Assembly (NCBI RefSeq): GCF_029664245.1 | Contig: NZ_JANAIE010000003.1 | Location: 310,001 to 374,000, forward strand | DNA length: 64,000 nt | Origin: Profundicola chukchiensis | GTDB lineage: Bacteria > Bacteroidota > Bacteroidia > Flavobacteriales > Weeksellaceae | Direction of reading: 5' to 3' | Notes under the pieces: model-generated | Database searches by the model: none | Seen by the model: the letters and a program-made list of their open reading frames with translations, nothing else | Told to the model about the DNA's origin: nothing | Position numbers and translations under genes: made by a program | Shown here: positions 14,198 through 59,970 of the stretch, in pieces | Numbering within the stretch: position 1 is the stretch's first letter | How the letters are laid out: the number at the start of each line of letters is the position of its first letter

Positions 14198-14230
14198 ATA
14201 AAATAGCTCGTTATGAACAAGCTATTTTAT
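14192..14230 (-). terminator. Intrinsic terminator at the 3' end of rpiB
   Basis: An 11-base stem, ATAAAATAGCT (14198-14208) against AGCTATTTTAT (14220-14230), overlaps the last codons and stop of rpiB. On the minus strand it is followed by a T-rich tract. Confidence 0.65.
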
Positions 14231-14642
14231 CTACTCTTCTTTGGTGTCTACCACCTTCAAATTCTGTATTTAAATAGGCTTCAACGATATTTAAACCTAA
14301 TTCTTCTGAAATAAATCGCGCCGGAAGCACCAAAATATTAGCATTGTTATGTTGGCGAGCCAATTCTGCTAATTCTGTAGTCCAGCAAATAGCTGCACGA
14401 ATGTTTTGATGTTTATTTGCCGCCATAGCAATTCCATTTCCGCTTCCGCATAATAAAATACCAAGGTCAGCATCTTTGTTTTCAACAGCATTTGCCGTTG
14501 GATGTGCGTAATCTGGATAATCAACACTCTCTGTTGAATGTGTCCCAAAATCCTTAACCTCAATACTTTTTGATGTTAATAACTGTTTAATTTTCTCTTT
14601 TAATTCAAATCCTGCGTGATCTGCTCCAATTGCTATTTTCAT
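14211..14642 (-). CDS. rpiB: Ribose-5-phosphate isomerase B
   Basis: A RpiB/LacAB-family sugar-phosphate isomerase interconverting ribose 5-phosphate and ribulose 5-phosphate. I use the ATG at 14642, which gives the canonical start MKIAIGADHAGFELK; an in-frame ATG 21 bases upstream adds seven unsupported residues. Visible motifs are DYPDYAHPTA (about 41-50), the active-site loop GILLCGSGNGIAMAANK (about 61-77) with its cysteine, and the C-terminal GGRHQRRVDKI. The resulting 143 residues match the family. It is the last minus-strand gene before the direction switch near 15 kb. Confidence 0.94.
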   Translation of the reverse strand: MKIAIGADHAGFELKEKIKQLLTSKSIEVKDFGTHSTESVDYPDYAHPTANAVENKDADLGILLCGSGNGIAMAANKHQNIRAAICWTTELAELARQHNNANILVLPARFISEELGLNIVEAYLNTEFEGGRHQRRVDKIACS

Positions 14643-15143
14643 GTTTTTTATAGTTTTCAACAAGCTTAAATGCTAAATTTATGTATTCATCTGAACATCA
14701 AGGGAATTCTTATGTAAACAAATTGTTAATAGAAATTGAATAAGTGTTCATAGCTTTTAAAAGCTTTTCCTTGATTAATCCAGAAATAATATTAATGTCA
14801 AAATTAAGTAATTCAAAGCAAATTTTCTTATTGATTTCTATTGGGAAGATATCAACGACTTTTACAGAGAAATTCAGAATTTACTTATTCAGCTTTCAAC
14901 AAAATTCACCGTTTTGTTAATTTCTTAATAACTTTGTAAATGTATGATTTATAAAGAACTATTTTTTGATAAACTGTGGATAAAGTTGCAACAAAATTAA
15001 AAGCCATTTAGTTTTCAACATATTCACAAAGCATTATCATTATCATTAGTTTTTTTAAATCTTTTTTTAAACTTAAAATATAATATATAAATATGAAGAG
15101 CTAATAGTTGAAACTTCTCTTCGACTTAATTTGATGCTTTGTG
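14643..15143. other. Candidate chromosomal replication origin (oriC-like intergenic region)
   Basis: This region of about 500 bases lies between divergent rpiB and pgk. It contains an exact DnaA box, TGTGGATAA (14975-14983); a near box, ATATTCACA (15020-15028); three TTTCAACA motifs near 14652, 14894 and 15012; an ATCATT-type repeat (15031-15048); and a very AT-rich stretch of about 45 bases (15049-15095). Genes from 6.4 to 14.6 kb run leftwards and nearly all genes from 15.2 to 42 kb run rightwards, as expected at an origin. Two parS-like sites occur about 43 kb away. No dnaA gene is in the window, so this stays a candidate. Confidence 0.5.
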
Positions 15144-15151
15144 TATATTTG
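15144..15151 (+). promoter_or_regulatory. pgk -7 promoter element
   Basis: TATATTTG exactly fits the Bacteroidetes -7 consensus TAnnTTTG and ends 18 bases before the pgk ATG. That implies a very short leader. Confidence 0.5.
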
Positions 15152-15169
15152 TAATCTCAAGCGAAAACT

Positions 15170-16363
15170 ATGAAACATTTAGACAGTTTTAATTTCAAGA
15201 ATAAAAAAGTATTGATTCGTGTAGATTTTAATGTTCCTCTAGACAAGGAGATGAACATAACCGATAAAACGAGAATACTTGCAGCTAAGCCAACTATTTT
15301 AAAGGTATTAAAAGATGGTGGAGCTGTTATTCTAATGACGCACTTAGGTAGACCTAAAGGAGAAAAAGTGGATAGCTTATCTTTAGAGCGTATTGCTGGA
15401 CCTCTTTCGGATGCTTTGGGTATTGTAGTACAATGTTCTACCGATGTGGTTGGAGAAGACGCGCAAACTAAGGCTAAAAATTTAGCTATGGGGAATGTGC
15501 TTATGCTTCAAAATCTAAGATTTAGAGAAGAAGAGGAAAAAGGAGATGTAGATTTTGCTGAGCAATTAGCTTCTTTAGGTGATTTTTATATCAATGATGC
15601 TTTTGGAACAGCACACAGAAACCATGCTTCTACTGCTGTAATTGCTCAATTCTTTGATAAAGACCACAAAGCTTTTGGATATTTAATGGATAAAGAGTTA
15701 AAAGCGATTGATACTGTGTTAAATACTGGAGAAAAACCTGTTTTAGCCATTTTAGGTGGATCTAAGGTTTCTTCTAAAATTACGATTATTGATAATATCT
15801 TACCGGCTATTGATAAATTGATTATTGGTGGAGGTATGATGTTTACTTTTATTAAAGCTCAAGGTGGACAAATCGGTGGATCTATTGTAGAAGATGATAA
15901 ACTAGATTTGGCTTTAGAGATTTTAGAACAAGCTAAAAAACATAATGTTGAGGTTCATTTACCAGTAGATGTATTAGCAGCAGATGATTTCAACAATGGT
16001 GCTAAAACTCAGATAGTTGATGTTGATAAGATTCCTGACGGTTGGCAAGGACTTGATATTGGACCTGAAAGTATCGAGAAATTTAAAGAAGTAATTCTTT
16101 CGTCTAAAACTATTTTATGGAACGGACCTGTAGGTGTGTTTGAGTTTGAGAATTTTGCCAAAGGAACCAAAGAATTAGGCGTTGCCATAGACGAGGCTAC
16201 AAGAGCTGGAGCTTTCTCTTTAGTGGGAGGAGGTGATTCTGTAGCAGCCGTTAAACAGTTCGGTTTTGAACATAAAATGAGTTATGTTTCTACGGGAGGT
16301 GGTGCTATGTTAGAAAGTTTAGAAGGCGTTAAACTACCAGGAGTTGCGGCTATGGAAGCATAA
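15170..16363 (+). CDS. pgk: Phosphoglycerate kinase
   Basis: The glycolytic kinase that transfers phosphate from 1,3-bisphosphoglycerate to ADP. The 397 residues match the family. The N-terminal domain shows VLIRVDFNVPLD (about 14-25), MTHLGRPKG (about 60-68) and NDAFGTAHRNHAST (about 142-155). The C-terminal nucleotide domain has LGGSKVSSKI (about 195-204), the GPVGVFEFENFAKGT stretch and the glycine-rich STGGGAMLE (about 376-384). It is monocistronic, with a TATATTTG promoter element just upstream and an intrinsic terminator 22 bases after the stop. Confidence 0.97.
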   Translation: MKHLDSFNFKNKKVLIRVDFNVPLDKEMNITDKTRILAAKPTILKVLKDGGAVILMTHLGRPKGEKVDSLSLERIAGPLSDALGIVVQCSTDVVGEDAQTKAKNLAMGNVLMLQNLRFREEEEKGDVDFAEQLASLGDFYINDAFGTAHRNHASTAVIAQFFDKDHKAFGYLMDKELKAIDTVLNTGEKPVLAILGGSKVSSKITIIDNILPAIDKLIIGGGMMFTFIKAQGGQIGGSIVEDDKLDLALEILEQAKKHNVEVHLPVDVLAADDFNNGAKTQIVDVDKIPDGWQGLDIGPESIEKFKEVILSSKTILWNGPVGVFEFENFAKGTKELGVAIDEATRAGAFSLVGGGDSVAAVKQFGFEHKMSYVSTGGGAMLESLEGVKLPGVAAMEA

Positions 16364-39570: not shown

Positions 39571-41337
39571 ATGCAATTAAATAAAAGTATATTTTTATTG
39601 ATTTTGTTGGCGGGGACCTTTGTCTCGGCTCAGATTTCCTTTAAAGCTGTTCCTGATAAGACTTCTGCTAGGATAGGAGAGAGAATACAGCTTAGTTTTA
39701 TTATTACTACAAGTCAAGATTTAGACTTCGAACAAGTCACTTTCCCAAGTTTTGCTGGTTTTCAAATGATTGGACGTAATGTTGGTCAAAACTTTAGCTA
39801 TACCAATGGTAGAATGACCAAGCAATACATGGAAACTGTGATTTTAGTACCACAAAAGAAAGGTAAAATCACGATTAGTGGGGGTTACGTCATGGTAGAT
39901 GGTAAAAAATATCAATCTAACTCGGTTACTTTTAATATTTCAGAAGCTGCTCCCAAAACAAAAGTACAGGATAGTCAACTCGTTTTTATGGAAGTAATTC
40001 TAGATAAAAACAAGGTTTATCCAAATGAGAATATTAATGCAGAGATTAAGTTATATGCTAAATCTTTTGATGCATTAAGACGTAGATCTGATTTGGAAGT
40101 TCCAGGAATGTCTGATTTTCAAGTAAGGGAAGTTTCCAAGAATAAGGATCGTGATTTTGAGCAGGAAATGATTAATAATCAGGTTTATATCTCGGAGAGT
40201 ATTGCCGAATATCAATTAACACCTAAAAGTACAGGTGAATTAGTTATTCCCGCTTTTGCACTTCGAGTAGCTATCCCAATTGATATGTTCGATGAGCGAG
40301 TGGTACAAGTTAGGACCAATCATAGATCGATTCATGTGGTAGATTTTCCAGCCAATGCACCATCTATTTTTAAAGGAGCTGTGGGTGATTTTAGATTACT
40401 TACTCATTTAGATAAAAATGATGTGAATACCAAAGAATCAGTTAATTATGAGATTGAATTAATTGGTGAAGGTAATTTTTCAAGTATAATTCTACCAAAA
40501 ATTGATGTACCTAAAGATTTAGAGGTTTATCCATCTAAAACAAGAAATTCTTTTCAAACCACCTCCTCTGGAGAAAAAGGAAAGATTGTAGATCGCTATG
40601 TAATGGTTCCTCAGTATGGAGGAAGTTTTAAAATTCCTGAAATCGAGTTTTGTTATTTTAATCCAAAAACGGAAAAATACATCACTATTACTTCAGATGC
40701 TCAAGAGTTAAATGTAAAAGGTGAAACTAAACAAGAAACTCAAACCAAAACAGAAATAGCCAAGGCAGATTCGATTAAACAAGATTCAGCAAAGTCGATG
40801 AAGAGCATATTACCAGAGATTCCTTCGGAGATTACCAATATTTTTAAAAAGCCTAAGAATGATTTAAGCGTCGATAAGCAAGAATCTTCTAGTAATAGTA
40901 GTTGGTGGTATGCAGGTCTAGGACTTCCCTTAATCGCGGGATTAGTTTGGTTCTTTGTGTTTAGAAAGCCTAAAGAGGATAACGAAGATGAATTAGACAT
41001 GGCAGAATTTAATGCTTCTGCTTTAAAATCTAAGCTTAAATCGGATTTAAAAGATTTAAAATTGGCTCAACAAAGTCATGATAAGGATTCATTCTTGAGA
41101 AAAGCCAATGAAATTTTAAATGATATTGTAGTTAAAAAGGCTGGTGAACATAAATTGTATGATGTAATCGAGGCTAAGAATATACTTTCAAATCAAGTCT
41201 CGAACGACTATGCCTCTCGCTGGGAGAAATTTTATAATGATATTCAATCCATGTCCTATGGAATGGCAACAAATGGTCTTGATTTAGAAGGAAAATACGT
41301 TGTGATAGAGGATTTGGTTAAGGAATCATTAAAATAA
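39571..41337 (+). CDS. batD: BatD, oxygen-tolerance family membrane protein
   Basis: A 588-residue BatD protein. A signal peptide (MQLNKSIFLLILLAGTFVSAQ) is followed by several immunoglobulin-like beta domains (ISFKAVPDKTSARIGERIQL start, about 22-370), a membrane helix (WWYAGLGLPLIAGLVWFFVF, about 447-466) and a cytoplasmic helical tail of 115 residues. The large periplasmic part probably assembles with BatA and BatB. It is the last gene of the cluster; marC has its own promoter element. Confidence 0.88.
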   Translation: MQLNKSIFLLILLAGTFVSAQISFKAVPDKTSARIGERIQLSFIITTSQDLDFEQVTFPSFAGFQMIGRNVGQNFSYTNGRMTKQYMETVILVPQKKGKITISGGYVMVDGKKYQSNSVTFNISEAAPKTKVQDSQLVFMEVILDKNKVYPNENINAEIKLYAKSFDALRRRSDLEVPGMSDFQVREVSKNKDRDFEQEMINNQVYISESIAEYQLTPKSTGELVIPAFALRVAIPIDMFDERVVQVRTNHRSIHVVDFPANAPSIFKGAVGDFRLLTHLDKNDVNTKESVNYEIELIGEGNFSSIILPKIDVPKDLEVYPSKTRNSFQTTSSGEKGKIVDRYVMVPQYGGSFKIPEIEFCYFNPKTEKYITITSDAQELNVKGETKQETQTKTEIAKADSIKQDSAKSMKSILPEIPSEITNIFKKPKNDLSVDKQESSSNSSWWYAGLGLPLIAGLVWFFVFRKPKEDNEDELDMAEFNASALKSKLKSDLKDLKLAQQSHDKDSFLRKANEILNDIVVKKAGEHKLYDVIEAKNILSNQVSNDYASRWEKFYNDIQSMSYGMATNGLDLEGKYVVIEDLVKESLK

Positions 41338-43647: not shown

Positions 43648-43891
43648 AACTTTCGAGTTTTATATGTTTAAACATTTTTATTTTCAATTGGAATTTAATG
43701 TTTAATTAAAGATAAGCCATATACAAAAATAGAACATTTAGAGCATATTTGTGTCTGACAAAAATTAAACTTATCCACAATTTGACCTGTGTATGTTGAT
43801 TTTATTAATCAATAAATTTAACAAAATCTTATCAATTTTATTGAAAATAATATTTATTGTCTTAACTTTATGTGGAAAATAATTGATTTTT

Positions 43892-44296
43892 ATGGGTAAG
43901 TTTTTATTTATTTTGTTGCTCACATTGTTTTCTACAATAATTGAAGCTCAAACTTTTAAATTAAAAGCTTTAGAATACTCCTCTAGAGATTTTGATAATG
44001 GTATTTGGTCTGATTGGTCAAAAGAAATAAAACTCAATTTTCTGGTCACAATAAATTTTGATGACCATAAAATAAAAGTATTTAATAGATACAATCCCGA
44101 GGAATTTGATATTGTGAGATATTATGAAATAGTAAAGGTAGAGGGACATGATGTTTTAGAACTTGAAGTTGTGGATAGCAAAGGTTATGATTGTGGTATT
44201 AAATTAATTTTCTCCAAAAAAACGGATGAGGCTTGGGTAACCATGTATGTGATGTATGGAAATTTTGATTATATGTTATATATGGAACCTAGTTAA
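43892..44296 (+). CDS. Small secreted protein, first of a tandem pair
   Basis: I start at the ATG at 43892 (signal peptide MGKFLFILLLTLFSTIIEAQ); a TTG 9 bases upstream is less likely. The mature part is beta-rich and alternates charged and aromatic residues. It shares a pattern with the next gene: SRDFDNGIWSDWSKE, then FDIVRYYE and a C-terminal YGNFDYMLY. The pair arose by duplication. Function unknown. A DnaA-box-like TTATCCACA lies upstream at 43771-43779. Confidence 0.65.
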   Translation: MGKFLFILLLTLFSTIIEAQTFKLKALEYSSRDFDNGIWSDWSKEIKLNFLVTINFDDHKIKVFNRYNPEEFDIVRYYEIVKVEGHDVLELEVVDSKGYDCGIKLIFSKKTDEAWVTMYVMYGNFDYMLYMEPS

Positions 44297-44394
44297 CTAC
44301 TATAGAGTTTTAGAATTCAATATTATAAATTAAATTTAAAATACTGTTAAACAATTTAATATTCATCAAATCAATCTTTTTAAAATCAATTAAA

Positions 44395-44802
44395 ATGTAT
44401 AAGAAAATATTAATATATGTTTTATTATTTGCTTCAATTTTAACTTCTGCTCAAGTTGTTAAATTTAGAGCAAAATTATCTTCTACAAGAGATTATAATT
44501 CGGGTTCTTGGGGAGAGTTTACGGAAGAAAGGATATCGAACGATCTTATAGTATTAGACTTTGATAAAGCCAAAGTAACGATTTATATGAGAGAGAATAT
44601 TGAGGATTTTGATATTATCAAAGAATATAAAACAGAAATATCGTCGGATGGAACGCATATTAATACTTATAAGGCTGTGGATAAAGAGGGATTGAAATGT
44701 ACAATTTTATTTGCCTATTACCCAGATAATGTTAAACTTGGAATGGGATTGTTTGTCCGATATGGAAACTTTGAATATAGTTATTATGGAGACTATAATT
44801 GA
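44395..44802 (+). CDS. Small secreted protein, second of a tandem pair
   Basis: A 135-residue paralogue of the preceding gene, with signal peptide ILIYVLLFASILTSAQ. Matching elements are TRDYNSGSWGEFTEE, FDIIKEYK and YGNFEYSYYGDYN, in the same order and spacing. A 98-base gap separates the two genes. No family recognised; sequence divergence is high, so the duplication is not recent. Confidence 0.65.
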   Translation: MYKKILIYVLLFASILTSAQVVKFRAKLSSTRDYNSGSWGEFTEERISNDLIVLDFDKAKVTIYMRENIEDFDIIKEYKTEISSDGTHINTYKAVDKEGLKCTILFAYYPDNVKLGMGLFVRYGNFEYSYYGDYN

Positions 44803-57206: not shown

Positions 57207-58055
57207 CTATTTAAGTCTCAATTGATAAATTAACGACGAATATTGACCGTTTTGCATAGCTTTTAAATTAGAAACTAATCCAATACCAAAAGCTTTAAAT
57301 AGTCCTAGTGAACTTCCTTTATATTTCTCTGATAAAAGACTCGCGTAGAACGAATCAAATTTCATGGGATGTATACTTTCTATAACCATGCCAAATTCGT
57401 CGGCGATTTTAGAAAAAGAAGTTTGATTGAAGTGCCATAGGTGGCGAGGTACATCATATGCCGCCCAATATTCTTCATAATATTGAGCATCGAAAGATTC
57501 ATAATTTGGAACGGCAATGAATAGTTTTCCGTTCGGGTTTAAGGCATTTTTAAGTCGAGCTAATTCTTCGAATAAATTGGGAATATGTTCCAAAACATGC
57601 CATAATGTGATGACATCAAATTTTTGATCATCTAAAAATTCAGAGTTGGAGTAGAAGTTATTTTCATCTTTTTCAGATGCAATTTTAAACGCCACTGGGT
57701 TTGGTTCAAACCCAATGGCATTTAAATTTTGTGTGTTCAGGTAGCGAACAAATTCTCCGGTTCCGCATCCATAATCTAAAACTTTTGTTCCTTGAGTAGC
57801 CTTTTTTATGAGCTTATGTTTATGTTTTAAATTATAACTTTTAACCCAATAATAGAGTTGATTAATTAATCCTTTTGAGTTATCAGAATGCGAAATATAA
57901 TCTTCGCTCTCATAATATTTAGAGAGTTGATCGCTCGGAGGAAATGGAAAAGTCTTTAATAAACCAGGGTATTTATCCACTGGTTTTAATTGAAATTTCT
58001 CATTCGAAACGAGATAATCCTCGTAGAATTTATTCACTTGTTTCACGTGGAACAA
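57207..58055 (-). CDS. Class I SAM-dependent methyltransferase
   Basis: A 282-residue methyltransferase. The SAM-binding motif KVLDYGCGTGEFVRYL is near residues 87-102, followed by IGFEPNP (about 111-117) and DVITLWHVLEHIPNL (about 143-157). The start is uncertain: a TTG at 58055 gives MFHVKQVNK, with the first codons inside a parS-like palindrome, while a GTG at 58037 gives MNKFYEDYLVS, which is closer to family N-termini. The gene is 16 bases after mnmG. The substrate is unknown. Confidence 0.85.
   Translation of the reverse strand: MFHVKQVNKFYEDYLVSNEKFQLKPVDKYPGLLKTFPFPPSDQLSKYYESEDYISHSDNSKGLINQLYYWVKSYNLKHKHKLIKKATQGTKVLDYGCGTGEFVRYLNTQNLNAIGFEPNPVAFKIASEKDENNFYSNSEFLDDQKFDVITLWHVLEHIPNLFEELARLKNALNPNGKLFIAVPNYESFDAQYYEEYWAAYDVPRHLWHFNQTSFSKIADEFGMVIESIHPMKFDSFYASLLSEKYKGSSLGLFKAFGIGLVSNLKAMQNGQYSSLIYQLRLK
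58039..58054. promoter_or_regulatory. parS-like palindrome between mnmG and the methyltransferase gene
   Basis: TGTTTCACGTGGAACA differs at one position from the widespread ParB-binding consensus TGTTTCACGTGAAACA. A second site lies at the other end of mnmG. Confidence 0.75.
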
Positions 58056-58071
58056 TAGATTTAAATTTAGA

Positions 58072-59940
58072 TTATCTACCTAAATGAATTAATAAAATGC
58101 TCACATCAGAAGGCGAAACTCCACTAATTCTTGAAGCTTGTGCAATGGTTGCTGGTTGAATTTTTTCTAGTTTTTGCTGAGCTTCTTTTGAGATATTATG
58201 CAGTTGAGAATAGTCAAAATTATCTGGAATTTTCACGTATTCTAATCGGCTTAATTTGTCTGCATTGTTTTTCTCCTTGTTGATATAACCTTCGTATTTA
58301 ATTAAAATTTCTGCTTGTTCAAATGCTTCTTTATCGTCAGCAGTTGATTCTAAATATTCAGAAAATGATGGAACATTTCTTAATTCATCCAATGAAATTT
58401 CTGGACGTTTTACGATGGTATTCATCTTCATTCCTTGAGAAATTGGTTTACCACCTTTCTCTTCAATCACAGAATTTACATCCTCAGGAGAGATAGAATT
58501 ATTAGTAATAAAGTCGATTAAATCATGTGTTCTTTTATGCTTAATATCTAATCGATGCATACGCTCATTTTTAGCTAATCCTATCGCATGGGCAATAGGT
58601 GTTAGTCTTTCGTCGGCATTATCTTGTCTTAAAAGAATTCTGAACTCAGCTCTAGATGTAAACATTCTATAAGGTTCTTCTGTGCCTTTTGTAATTAAAT
58701 CATCAATCAATACTCCTATATAAGCGTCATTTCTTTGAAGAATAAATGGGTCTTTTTCATTGTTCTTAAGATGTGCATTGATACCCGCCATCAATCCTTG
58801 ACAAGCTGCTTCTTCATAACCAGTGGTACCATTAATTTGACCTGCGAAATAAAGGTTCTCTACCAATTTCGTTTCAAGCGTATGCTTTAACTGGGTAGGA
58901 GGGAAGTAGTCGTATTCTATGGCATAACCAGGTCTGAAAATCTTAGCTTTTTCAAATCCAGGAATTGTTCTTAATGCTTTCGCTTGTATGTCTTCTGGTA
59001 AAGAAGTTGAGAATCCATTCACATAAATTTCTACTGTATCCCAACCTTCTGGCTCAACAAATATTTGGTGTCTATCTCGCTCAGCGAAGCGATTAATTTT
59101 ATCTTCAATCGATGGGCAGTATCTTGGCCCAACACTTTTAATTCTACCATTAAACATAGGAGATCTATCAAAACCTTCTCTCAAGATATCGTGTACATCT
59201 TGATTGGTATAGGTCATATGACAATCTCTTTGTTGGGTTAATTTAGGAGTATTTAAATAAGAGAATTTTTCTGGTTTTTCATCTCCTGGTTGAACAATCA
59301 TTTTAGAATAATCTAAGGATCTACCATCTACTCTCGGAGGTGTTCCTGTTTTCATTCTGCCAGATTCGAAACCTAAATTCACAAGTTGTTCGGTAATTCC
59401 TGTAGCTGCTTTTTCGCCCATTCTTCCACCGCCAAGTTGTTTGTCACCGACATGAATTAGTCCGTTTAAAAAGGTGCCATTCGTTAATATTACACTCTTA
59501 CATTTAATCTCCAAACCTAAGCTTGTTTTGACTCCAACCACCTTGTTGTTTTCAACCAAAAGACCGGTAACCATATCTTGATAGAAGTCTACATTTTGAG
59601 TTTCTTCTAACATGGTTCTCCATTTCTCTGAGAATCTCATTCTATCAGATTGTGCTCTTGGACTCCACATTGCTGGACCTTTAGAAAGGTTCAACATTTT
59701 AAATTGAATCATCGTGTGGTCGGTAATAATACCAGAGTAACCACCAAGTGCATCAATCTCTCGAACAATCTGTCCTTTTGCAATTCCACCCATAGCAGGA
59801 TTGCAAGACATTTGTCCCAGTACTTGAAGATTCATTGTAACTAATAAAGTAGAAGATCCAAGATTCGCAGCGGCGGCAGCAGCTTCGCAGCCAGCATGTC
59901 CACCACCTACGACAATAACATCATATTCTTGTAAAAACAT
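58072..59940 (-). CDS. mnmG: tRNA uridine-5-carboxymethylaminomethyl modification enzyme MnmG (GidA)
   Basis: An FAD enzyme that, with MnmE, modifies the wobble uridine of several tRNAs. The 622 residues match the family. The N-terminal FAD motif is [19 protein letters not shown] (about 7-25), followed by [20 protein letters not shown] (about 43-62), [13 protein letters not shown] (about 199-211) and [16 protein letters not shown] (about 374-389). The C-terminal helical part binds tRNA and MnmE. The gene is commonly near oriC. parS-like palindromes lie just outside both ends. Confidence 0.96.
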
Positions 59941-59954
59941 AAATCACATTTAGA

Positions 59955-59970
59955 TGTTCCACGTGGAACA
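59955..59970. promoter_or_regulatory. parS-like palindrome upstream of mnmG
   Basis: TGTTCCACGTGGAACA is a perfect 16-base palindrome of the GTTYCACGTGRAAC type bound by ParB proteins. It lies 15 bases upstream of the mnmG start. Confidence 0.8.

What the first reader, a model, noticed from the sequence alone, without database searches (positions are those of the whole stretch)
14643..15143. Candidate replication origin at a gene-direction switch
The region between rpiB and pgk has an exact DnaA box, a near box, TTTCAACA motifs, an AT-rich tract and an ATCATT repeat. To its left nearly all genes from 6.4 kb are on the minus strand; to its right nearly all up to 42 kb are on the plus strand. 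Two parS-like sites lie 43-45 kb away.
Basis: partly seen in the sequence, partly recalled or inferred. Interest (0 to 1): 0.68.

Follow-up and report, generated by a model that had tools for sequence, protein, structure and literature searches.

The report
Chromosome replication origin beside pgk
The stretch between the rpiB and pgk genes is very probably the place where this flavobacterium starts copying its chromosome, and the same spot with the same short DNA element recurs across its bacterial family; it is an ordinary kind of origin in a location that the papers I searched do not describe.

Summary
From this genome alone the case is moderate: one exact DnaA box, 76.8% A+T, a GC-skew minimum within the window at 15072; on the 440-kb contig strand-corrected skew only brackets the origin (bootstrap 305-375 kb; gap at 325 kb). 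Comparison decides it. The rnr-rpiB | gap | pgk order is conserved in much of the family, and the most enriched 8-mers in 18 such gaps are the DnaA box. A ~100-bp core near pgk (15008-15107 here) matches in 108 of 120 family genomes. In 8 of 8 complete genomes sampled, the skew switch and the densest DnaA-box window both fall at the core. The only parS sites of this genome flank mnmG, 43-45 kb away; in relatives that block lies 2-43 kb from the core. The published DnaA-trio rule is not met in most relatives, which carry CAACAACA-type repeats instead. No replication experiment was possible; the family is unnamed (Weeksellaceae is a guess).

The parts
14643..15169 (.). predicted oriC: divergent intergenic region between rpiB and pgk
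   Evidence: AT-rich, DnaA box, window skew minimum at 15072; gap conserved in relatives
15008..15107 (+). conserved ~100-bp origin core (model R1 match, 23.3 bits, E 1.4e-4; next best in genome 15.9 bits)
14975..14983 (-). exact DnaA box TTATCCACA
15012..15020 (+). DnaA-box-like site 1 of the core (TTTTCAACA; TTATCCACA-type in relatives)
15021..15028 (+). DnaA-box-like site 2 of the core (TATTCACA), abutting site 1
15033..15047 (+). triplet stretch ATT ATC ATT ATC ATT (opposite strand 3'-TAA TAG TAA TAG TAA-5'), in the place of DnaA-trios
   Evidence: function inferred
15045..15094 (.). 94% A+T stretch with T-tract, likely unwinding element
   Evidence: function inferred
14655..14662 (+). TTTCAACA motif near rpiB, conserved in the genus
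14894..14901 (+). TTTCAACA motif, mid gap
15020..15034 (.). left arm of inverted repeat ATATTCACAAAGCAT
15134..15148 (.). right arm of inverted repeat ATGCTTTGTGTATAT (93% complementary)
14211..14642 (-). rpiB, flanking gene
   Evidence: PF02502
11686..13836 (-). rnr (ribonuclease R), next gene, syntenic in relatives
15170..16363 (+). pgk, flanking gene; the core lies upstream of it in relatives
58072..59940 (-). mnmG (gidA), origin-region marker gene
58039..58054 (.). parS site TGTTTCACGTGGAACA
59955..59970 (.). parS site TGTTCCACGTGGAACA

Best explanation
The gap 14643-15169 is the single chromosomal replication origin (oriC) of this flavobacterial chromosome. DnaA binds the exact box at 14975 and weaker TTTCAACA/TATTCACA sites, and is loaded as a filament from the tandem sites at 15012-15028 onto the adjacent triplet stretch and T-tract (15033-15094), which melts and takes the replicative helicase. 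Forks then leave in both directions, giving leading-strand genes on either side. ParB bound at the two parS sites around mnmG, 43-45 kb away, would mark the origin region for segregation. Shown: conserved location, box clustering, conserved core, skew switch at the core in relatives. Inferred: DnaA binding, melting site, helicase loading, use of parS.
For: Window skew minimum at 15072. rnr-rpiB-gap-pgk synteny in many family genomes. In 18 such gaps GTGGATAA is in 11 against 0.37 expected and TATCCACA in 10 against 0.30, the two most enriched 8-mers. Upstream regions of pgk in 80 more distant flavobacterial loci hold no exact box within 1200 bp, shorter in 2 loci. Core model R1: best hit in this genome is the candidate; 108 of 120 family genomes match at E<=0.01. 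All 30 loci kept from that search have pgk beside the hit; 7 of these genomes were used to build the model, 23 were not. In 8 of 8 complete genomes sampled, mean skew is negative left and positive right of the core, fitted offset within 0.105 of a genome, and the top DnaA-box window of the 20 kb is at the core, above all 3519 background windows of each genome. mnmG and parS lie within 2-43 kb of the core in 11 of 12 genomes, unresolved in 1.
Against: The raw skew minimum of the contig is 28.9 kb to the left. The strand-corrected breakpoint fits best at contig 353 kb (log-likelihood gain 33.6 against 25.9 at 325 kb), and only 25% of bootstraps fall at or below 330 kb. The core score here is modest (23.3 bits). 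A box cluster at 43.6-44.8 kb of the window scores as high, though it is absent from both same-genus genomes. The assembly is a draft of 108 contigs, so the genome-wide skew minimum is unknown.
Confidence: 0.89

Rival explanations
1. The true origin is at the mnmG-parS locus (57-60 kb of the window), the classical origin neighbour, and the rpiB-pgk gap is only a nearby DnaA-box-rich regulatory region.
For: Strand-corrected skew on the contig fits better at 353-369 kb than at 325 kb; in Bizionia and Mariniflexile, papers report Ori-Finder origins at mnmG (passages seen); parS only there.
Against: The DnaA-box score beside parS is 4.0 and 1.0 in this genome against 10.0 at the gap; beside parS in seven relatives' stretches it is 0-9, against 7.5-17.5 at the core in eight genomes (the two sets share six genomes). 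mnmG is only about 2-4 kb from the core in many relatives, so an origin 'at mnmG' there is compatible with the core.
Confidence: 0.05
2. The gap is a DnaA-regulated double promoter of rpiB and pgk or a DnaA-titrating locus (DARS/datA-like), not an origin.
For: Promoter-like TA-TTTG elements flank both genes (motif recalled; seen in the sequence); DnaA boxes alone do not make an origin.
Against: The core coincides with the skew switch in 8 of 8 sampled genomes; pgk genes of more distant flavobacteria lack exact boxes upstream (0 of 80 loci).
Confidence: 0.04
3. The DnaA-box cluster at 43.6-44.8 kb of the window is the origin.
For: Two exact and two 1-mismatch boxes within 0.9 kb, highest box density per intergenic base on the contig, inside the skew bracket.
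Against: No match in either same-genus genome and only short stretches elsewhere; no core-model hit there.
Confidence: 0.02

Closest known systems
DnaA-type bacterial oriC
   Same: DnaA-box cluster, AT-rich stretch, one best site per genome, skew switch (in relatives), parS and mnmG in the neighbourhood
   Different: Far from dnaA (here on another contig); flanked by rpiB and pgk. PMC4755523 (passage seen) says oriC is commonly far from dnaA in Bacteroidetes.
Ori-Finder-predicted oriC of Elizabethkingia meningoseptica (PMC8994065, passages seen)
   Same: A predicted 649-bp oriC with three DnaA boxes, far from dnaA
   Different: The passages give coordinates only, no flanking genes; I could not check that it is the same locus
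Ori-Finder oriC at mnmG in Bizionia and Mariniflexile (PMC12843772, PMC11278836, passages seen)
   Same: Flavobacterial origin region marked by mnmG
   Different: Here mnmG is 43 kb from the core; the core sits beside pgk
Basal unwinding system (BUS) with DnaA-trios (PMC8287927, passages seen)
   Same: Tandem DnaA boxes followed at close range by a triplet stretch and AT-rich DNA
   Different: At least three 3'-NAN-5' trios are found in only 7 of 46 cores, and runs are shorter than in shuffles; most relatives have CAACAACA-type repeats instead

Membership tests
DnaA-type oriC | cluster of DnaA boxes above background | tested here: met
   Window: score exceeded by 24 of 8797 windows. Family: 8 of 8 complete genomes, above all 3519 background windows of each
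DnaA-type oriC | located at the negative-to-positive GC-skew switch | tested here: met
   8 of 8 complete relatives; the own contig only brackets it, 305-375 kb with the candidate at 325 kb
DnaA-type oriC | AT-rich unwinding element | tested here: met
   94% A+T in 50 bp at 15045; melting itself not tested
DnaA-type oriC | one per chromosome, conserved in relatives | tested here: met
   Best model hit in own genome, next one 7 bits lower; 108 of 120 family genomes match
DnaA-type oriC | initiates replication in vivo / supports autonomous replication | not testable with these tools
   needs marker-frequency sequencing or a replication assay
BUS (DnaA-trio) unwinding element | tandem DnaA boxes at most 3 bp apart | tested here: met
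   15012-15020 and 15021-15028, each about 2 mismatches from consensus
BUS (DnaA-trio) unwinding element | at least three 3'-NAN-5' trios within 16 bp of a box | tested here: inconclusive
   The window core has 5, but 27.5% of shuffles reach this; across the family 7 of 46 have three, mean run 1.76 against 2.60 shuffled
parS-marked origin region | parS sites close to the origin | tested here: met
   The only parS matches lie beside mnmG in 12 of 12 genomes searched, 2-43 kb from the core in 11 of 12

The most novel reading that the evidence does not exclude
The family's origins melt at a variant of the DnaA-trio element: after tandem DnaA boxes comes CTACAACAACA or a similar repeat (opposite strand 3'-GAT GTT GTT GT-5'), so at most the first triplet keeps the usual central adenine, followed by a T-tract and A-tract. 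The window's genus has instead kept or regained canonical-looking triplets (ATT ATC ATT ATC ATT). DnaA here would read a different single-strand code.
Probability: 0.22. Interest if true: 0.6.

Novelty: new member of a known kind. Interest (0 to 1): 0.42.

Why it matters
It gives a precise, testable origin for a whole flavobacterial family in which dnaA is not a guide to the origin, so genomes can be oriented and growth rates read from coverage. It also offers a natural set of conserved origin cores in which the published DnaA-trio rule can be tested and apparently fails.

Tried and rejected
Contig-wide skew as the sole locator: raw minimum at contig 296087, strand-corrected minimum at 315045 with a flat floor from about 280 to 370 kb, bootstrap 305-375 kb; too coarse to choose between the gap, the 43.6-kb cluster and mnmG.

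RNA-like consensus structure of the core: none. A dyad with inverted boxes beyond the T-tract looked striking by eye; at most 1 of 60 shuffles reached the inverted-repeat score in 9 of 46 cores, and left and right boxes do not covary across 22 genera (permutation p 0.35). I therefore do not claim a dyad in general.

DnaA-trios as a family feature: rejected. The (CAA)2 motif is in 39 of 46 cores against 4.8% of shuffles, in 16 of 22 genera; some of these overlap box 2, and 28 of the 46 cores were found by the model itself, so the count is biased upwards. CTACAAC itself is in 16 of 46, counted by eye on the listing.

Rows dropped: G016 has the gap but no core could be aligned, so it was left out of model R1 (18 sequences used; one, G027, is from another family of the order, and one, G045, has leucyl-tRNA-synthetase-like coding sequence rather than pgk on the far side, named by eye and not searched). 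G092 and G140 were chosen for the skew test but could not be fetched, leaving 8 of 10. G010 and G022, sampled earlier and unevenly, agree weakly and were not counted. 12 of 120 family genomes had no model match at E<=0.01, and for G002 the only hit in that search lies elsewhere, not at its rpiB-pgk gap. At order level 11 of 99 genomes match at E<=1e-4, 10 of them in the family.

Literature: the searches listed no paper that I could see naming rpiB or pgk as the origin neighbour in this group (titles and abstract starts seen; passages of six papers read). Databases such as DoriC were not searchable, so a prediction there is possible.

Full report
What was checked. The window is contig C43, bases 310001-374000, of a 2.62-Mb draft in 108 contigs. 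All nine ORFs of at least 100 aa between 6404 and 14663 are on the minus strand and all 24 between 15170 and 42043 are on the plus strand. Flanking genes by Pfam are rpiB, pgk and, further left, rnr. dnaA is on another contig.

Evidence inside this genome. Within the window the cumulative G-C count reaches its minimum at 15072. On the complete 440-kb contig the raw minimum is at contig 296087, 28.9 kb to the left of the gap. Using fourfold-degenerate sites and correcting for gene strand, the minimum is at 315045 with a flat floor from about 280 to 370 kb. The best break is at 353 kb, and a gene bootstrap gives 305-375 kb. So skew here places the origin in a 70-kb stretch that includes the gap (325 kb) but does not choose it. 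By a DnaA-box cluster score only 24 of 8797 windows exceed the gap, and among 85 intergenic regions of 200 bp or more it ranks third.

Evidence from relatives. rnr-rpiB | gap | pgk is conserved in many genomes of the family. In 18 such gaps an unsupervised 8-mer count puts GTGGATAA (11 of 18, 0.37 expected) and TATCCACA (10 of 18, 0.30 expected) at the top, with variants of the same box among the next. Exact boxes occur in 10 of the 18. As a contrast, 80 pgk loci from more distant flavobacteria have no exact box in up to 1200 bp upstream.

The core. The pgk-side end of the gaps aligns over about 100 bp: two abutting DnaA-box-like sites, a short repeat stretch, a T-tract and an A-tract. A sequence-only model (R1) has its best match in this genome at the candidate itself, 23.3 bits against 15.9 for the next. 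In a family sample 108 of 120 genomes match at E<=0.01. All 30 loci kept from that search have pgk beside the match; 7 are genomes used for the model, 23 are not. In G003 and G075 rpiB is no longer adjacent but pgk still is.

Independent test. For complete genomes I sampled ten 20-kb stretches spread round the chromosome. Ten genomes were planned and eight could be fetched. In 8 of 8, mean skew is negative on the left half and positive on the right half of the core, and a sine fit puts the switch within 0.105 of a genome of it. In 8 of 8 the densest DnaA-box window of the surrounding 20 kb is at the core and exceeds all 3519 windows from the other nine stretches of the same genome. Six of the eight (G003, G042, G043, G048, G075, G132) are in genera with no member in the model; G066 and G120 share a genus with one member (genus labels).

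mnmG and parS. The two parS sites are the only ones in this genome and flank mnmG (58072-59940). In 12 of 12 genomes searched the only parS matches sit beside mnmG. mnmG begins about 2-3 kb from the core in G003, G048, G093, G132 and G136, about 14-15 kb in G022, G105 and G075, and 21-43 kb in the three members of the window's genus; in G005 the two are on different contigs. For G002 the core position used is that of its gap, because its model hit lies elsewhere.

Mechanism. Shown: conserved place, box cluster, core, skew switch. Inferred: DnaA nucleates on the tandem sites, extends over the triplet stretch and opens the T-tract. The published unwinding element (PMC8287927, passages seen) needs a box or tandem boxes and at least three 3'-NAN-5' triplets. 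The window core has five, but 27.5% of shuffles reach that; across 46 cores only 7 have three or more, and runs are shorter than shuffles give. Most relatives carry CAACAACA-type repeats there (39 of 46 with two CAA units). This is the part that could be new.

What it is. An ordinary DnaA-type origin of a kind long known, at a place not described in the papers I searched. PMC4755523 (passage seen) already states that oriC is commonly far from dnaA in Bacteroidetes; PMC12843772 and PMC11278836 (passages seen) place flavobacterial origins at mnmG; PMC8994065 (passages seen) gives coordinates of a predicted origin in Elizabethkingia without gene names.

Noticed in passing
window 43648-44802: A second DnaA-box cluster (two exact, two 1-mismatch boxes in 0.9 kb) in a low-GC region with three ORFs of 135-137 aa around it without Pfam match; absent from both same-genus genomes.
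   Followed up: partly
window 16364-57206: In several relatives pgk, a second gene and mnmG are neighbours; in this genus core and mnmG are 21-43 kb apart, as if DNA was inserted or rearranged beside the origin.
   Followed up: partly
G132:C1:73-167: A complete relative's record starts almost exactly at the core, so someone has probably already rotated that genome to a predicted origin.
   Followed up: no
window 15020-15034 and 15134-15148: 15-nt inverted repeat spanning core site 2 and the pgk promoter region; similar dyads in some relatives (9 of 46) but no covariation of the flanking boxes.
   Followed up: yes
G193:C7:49249-49344: One genome of another family of the order has a core-model match (E 9.3e-7), so the element may be older than the family.
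   Followed up: no
window 39571-41337: BatD-domain protein at the end of a run of closely packed plus-strand genes from about 34 kb, possibly a Bat operon.
   Followed up: no
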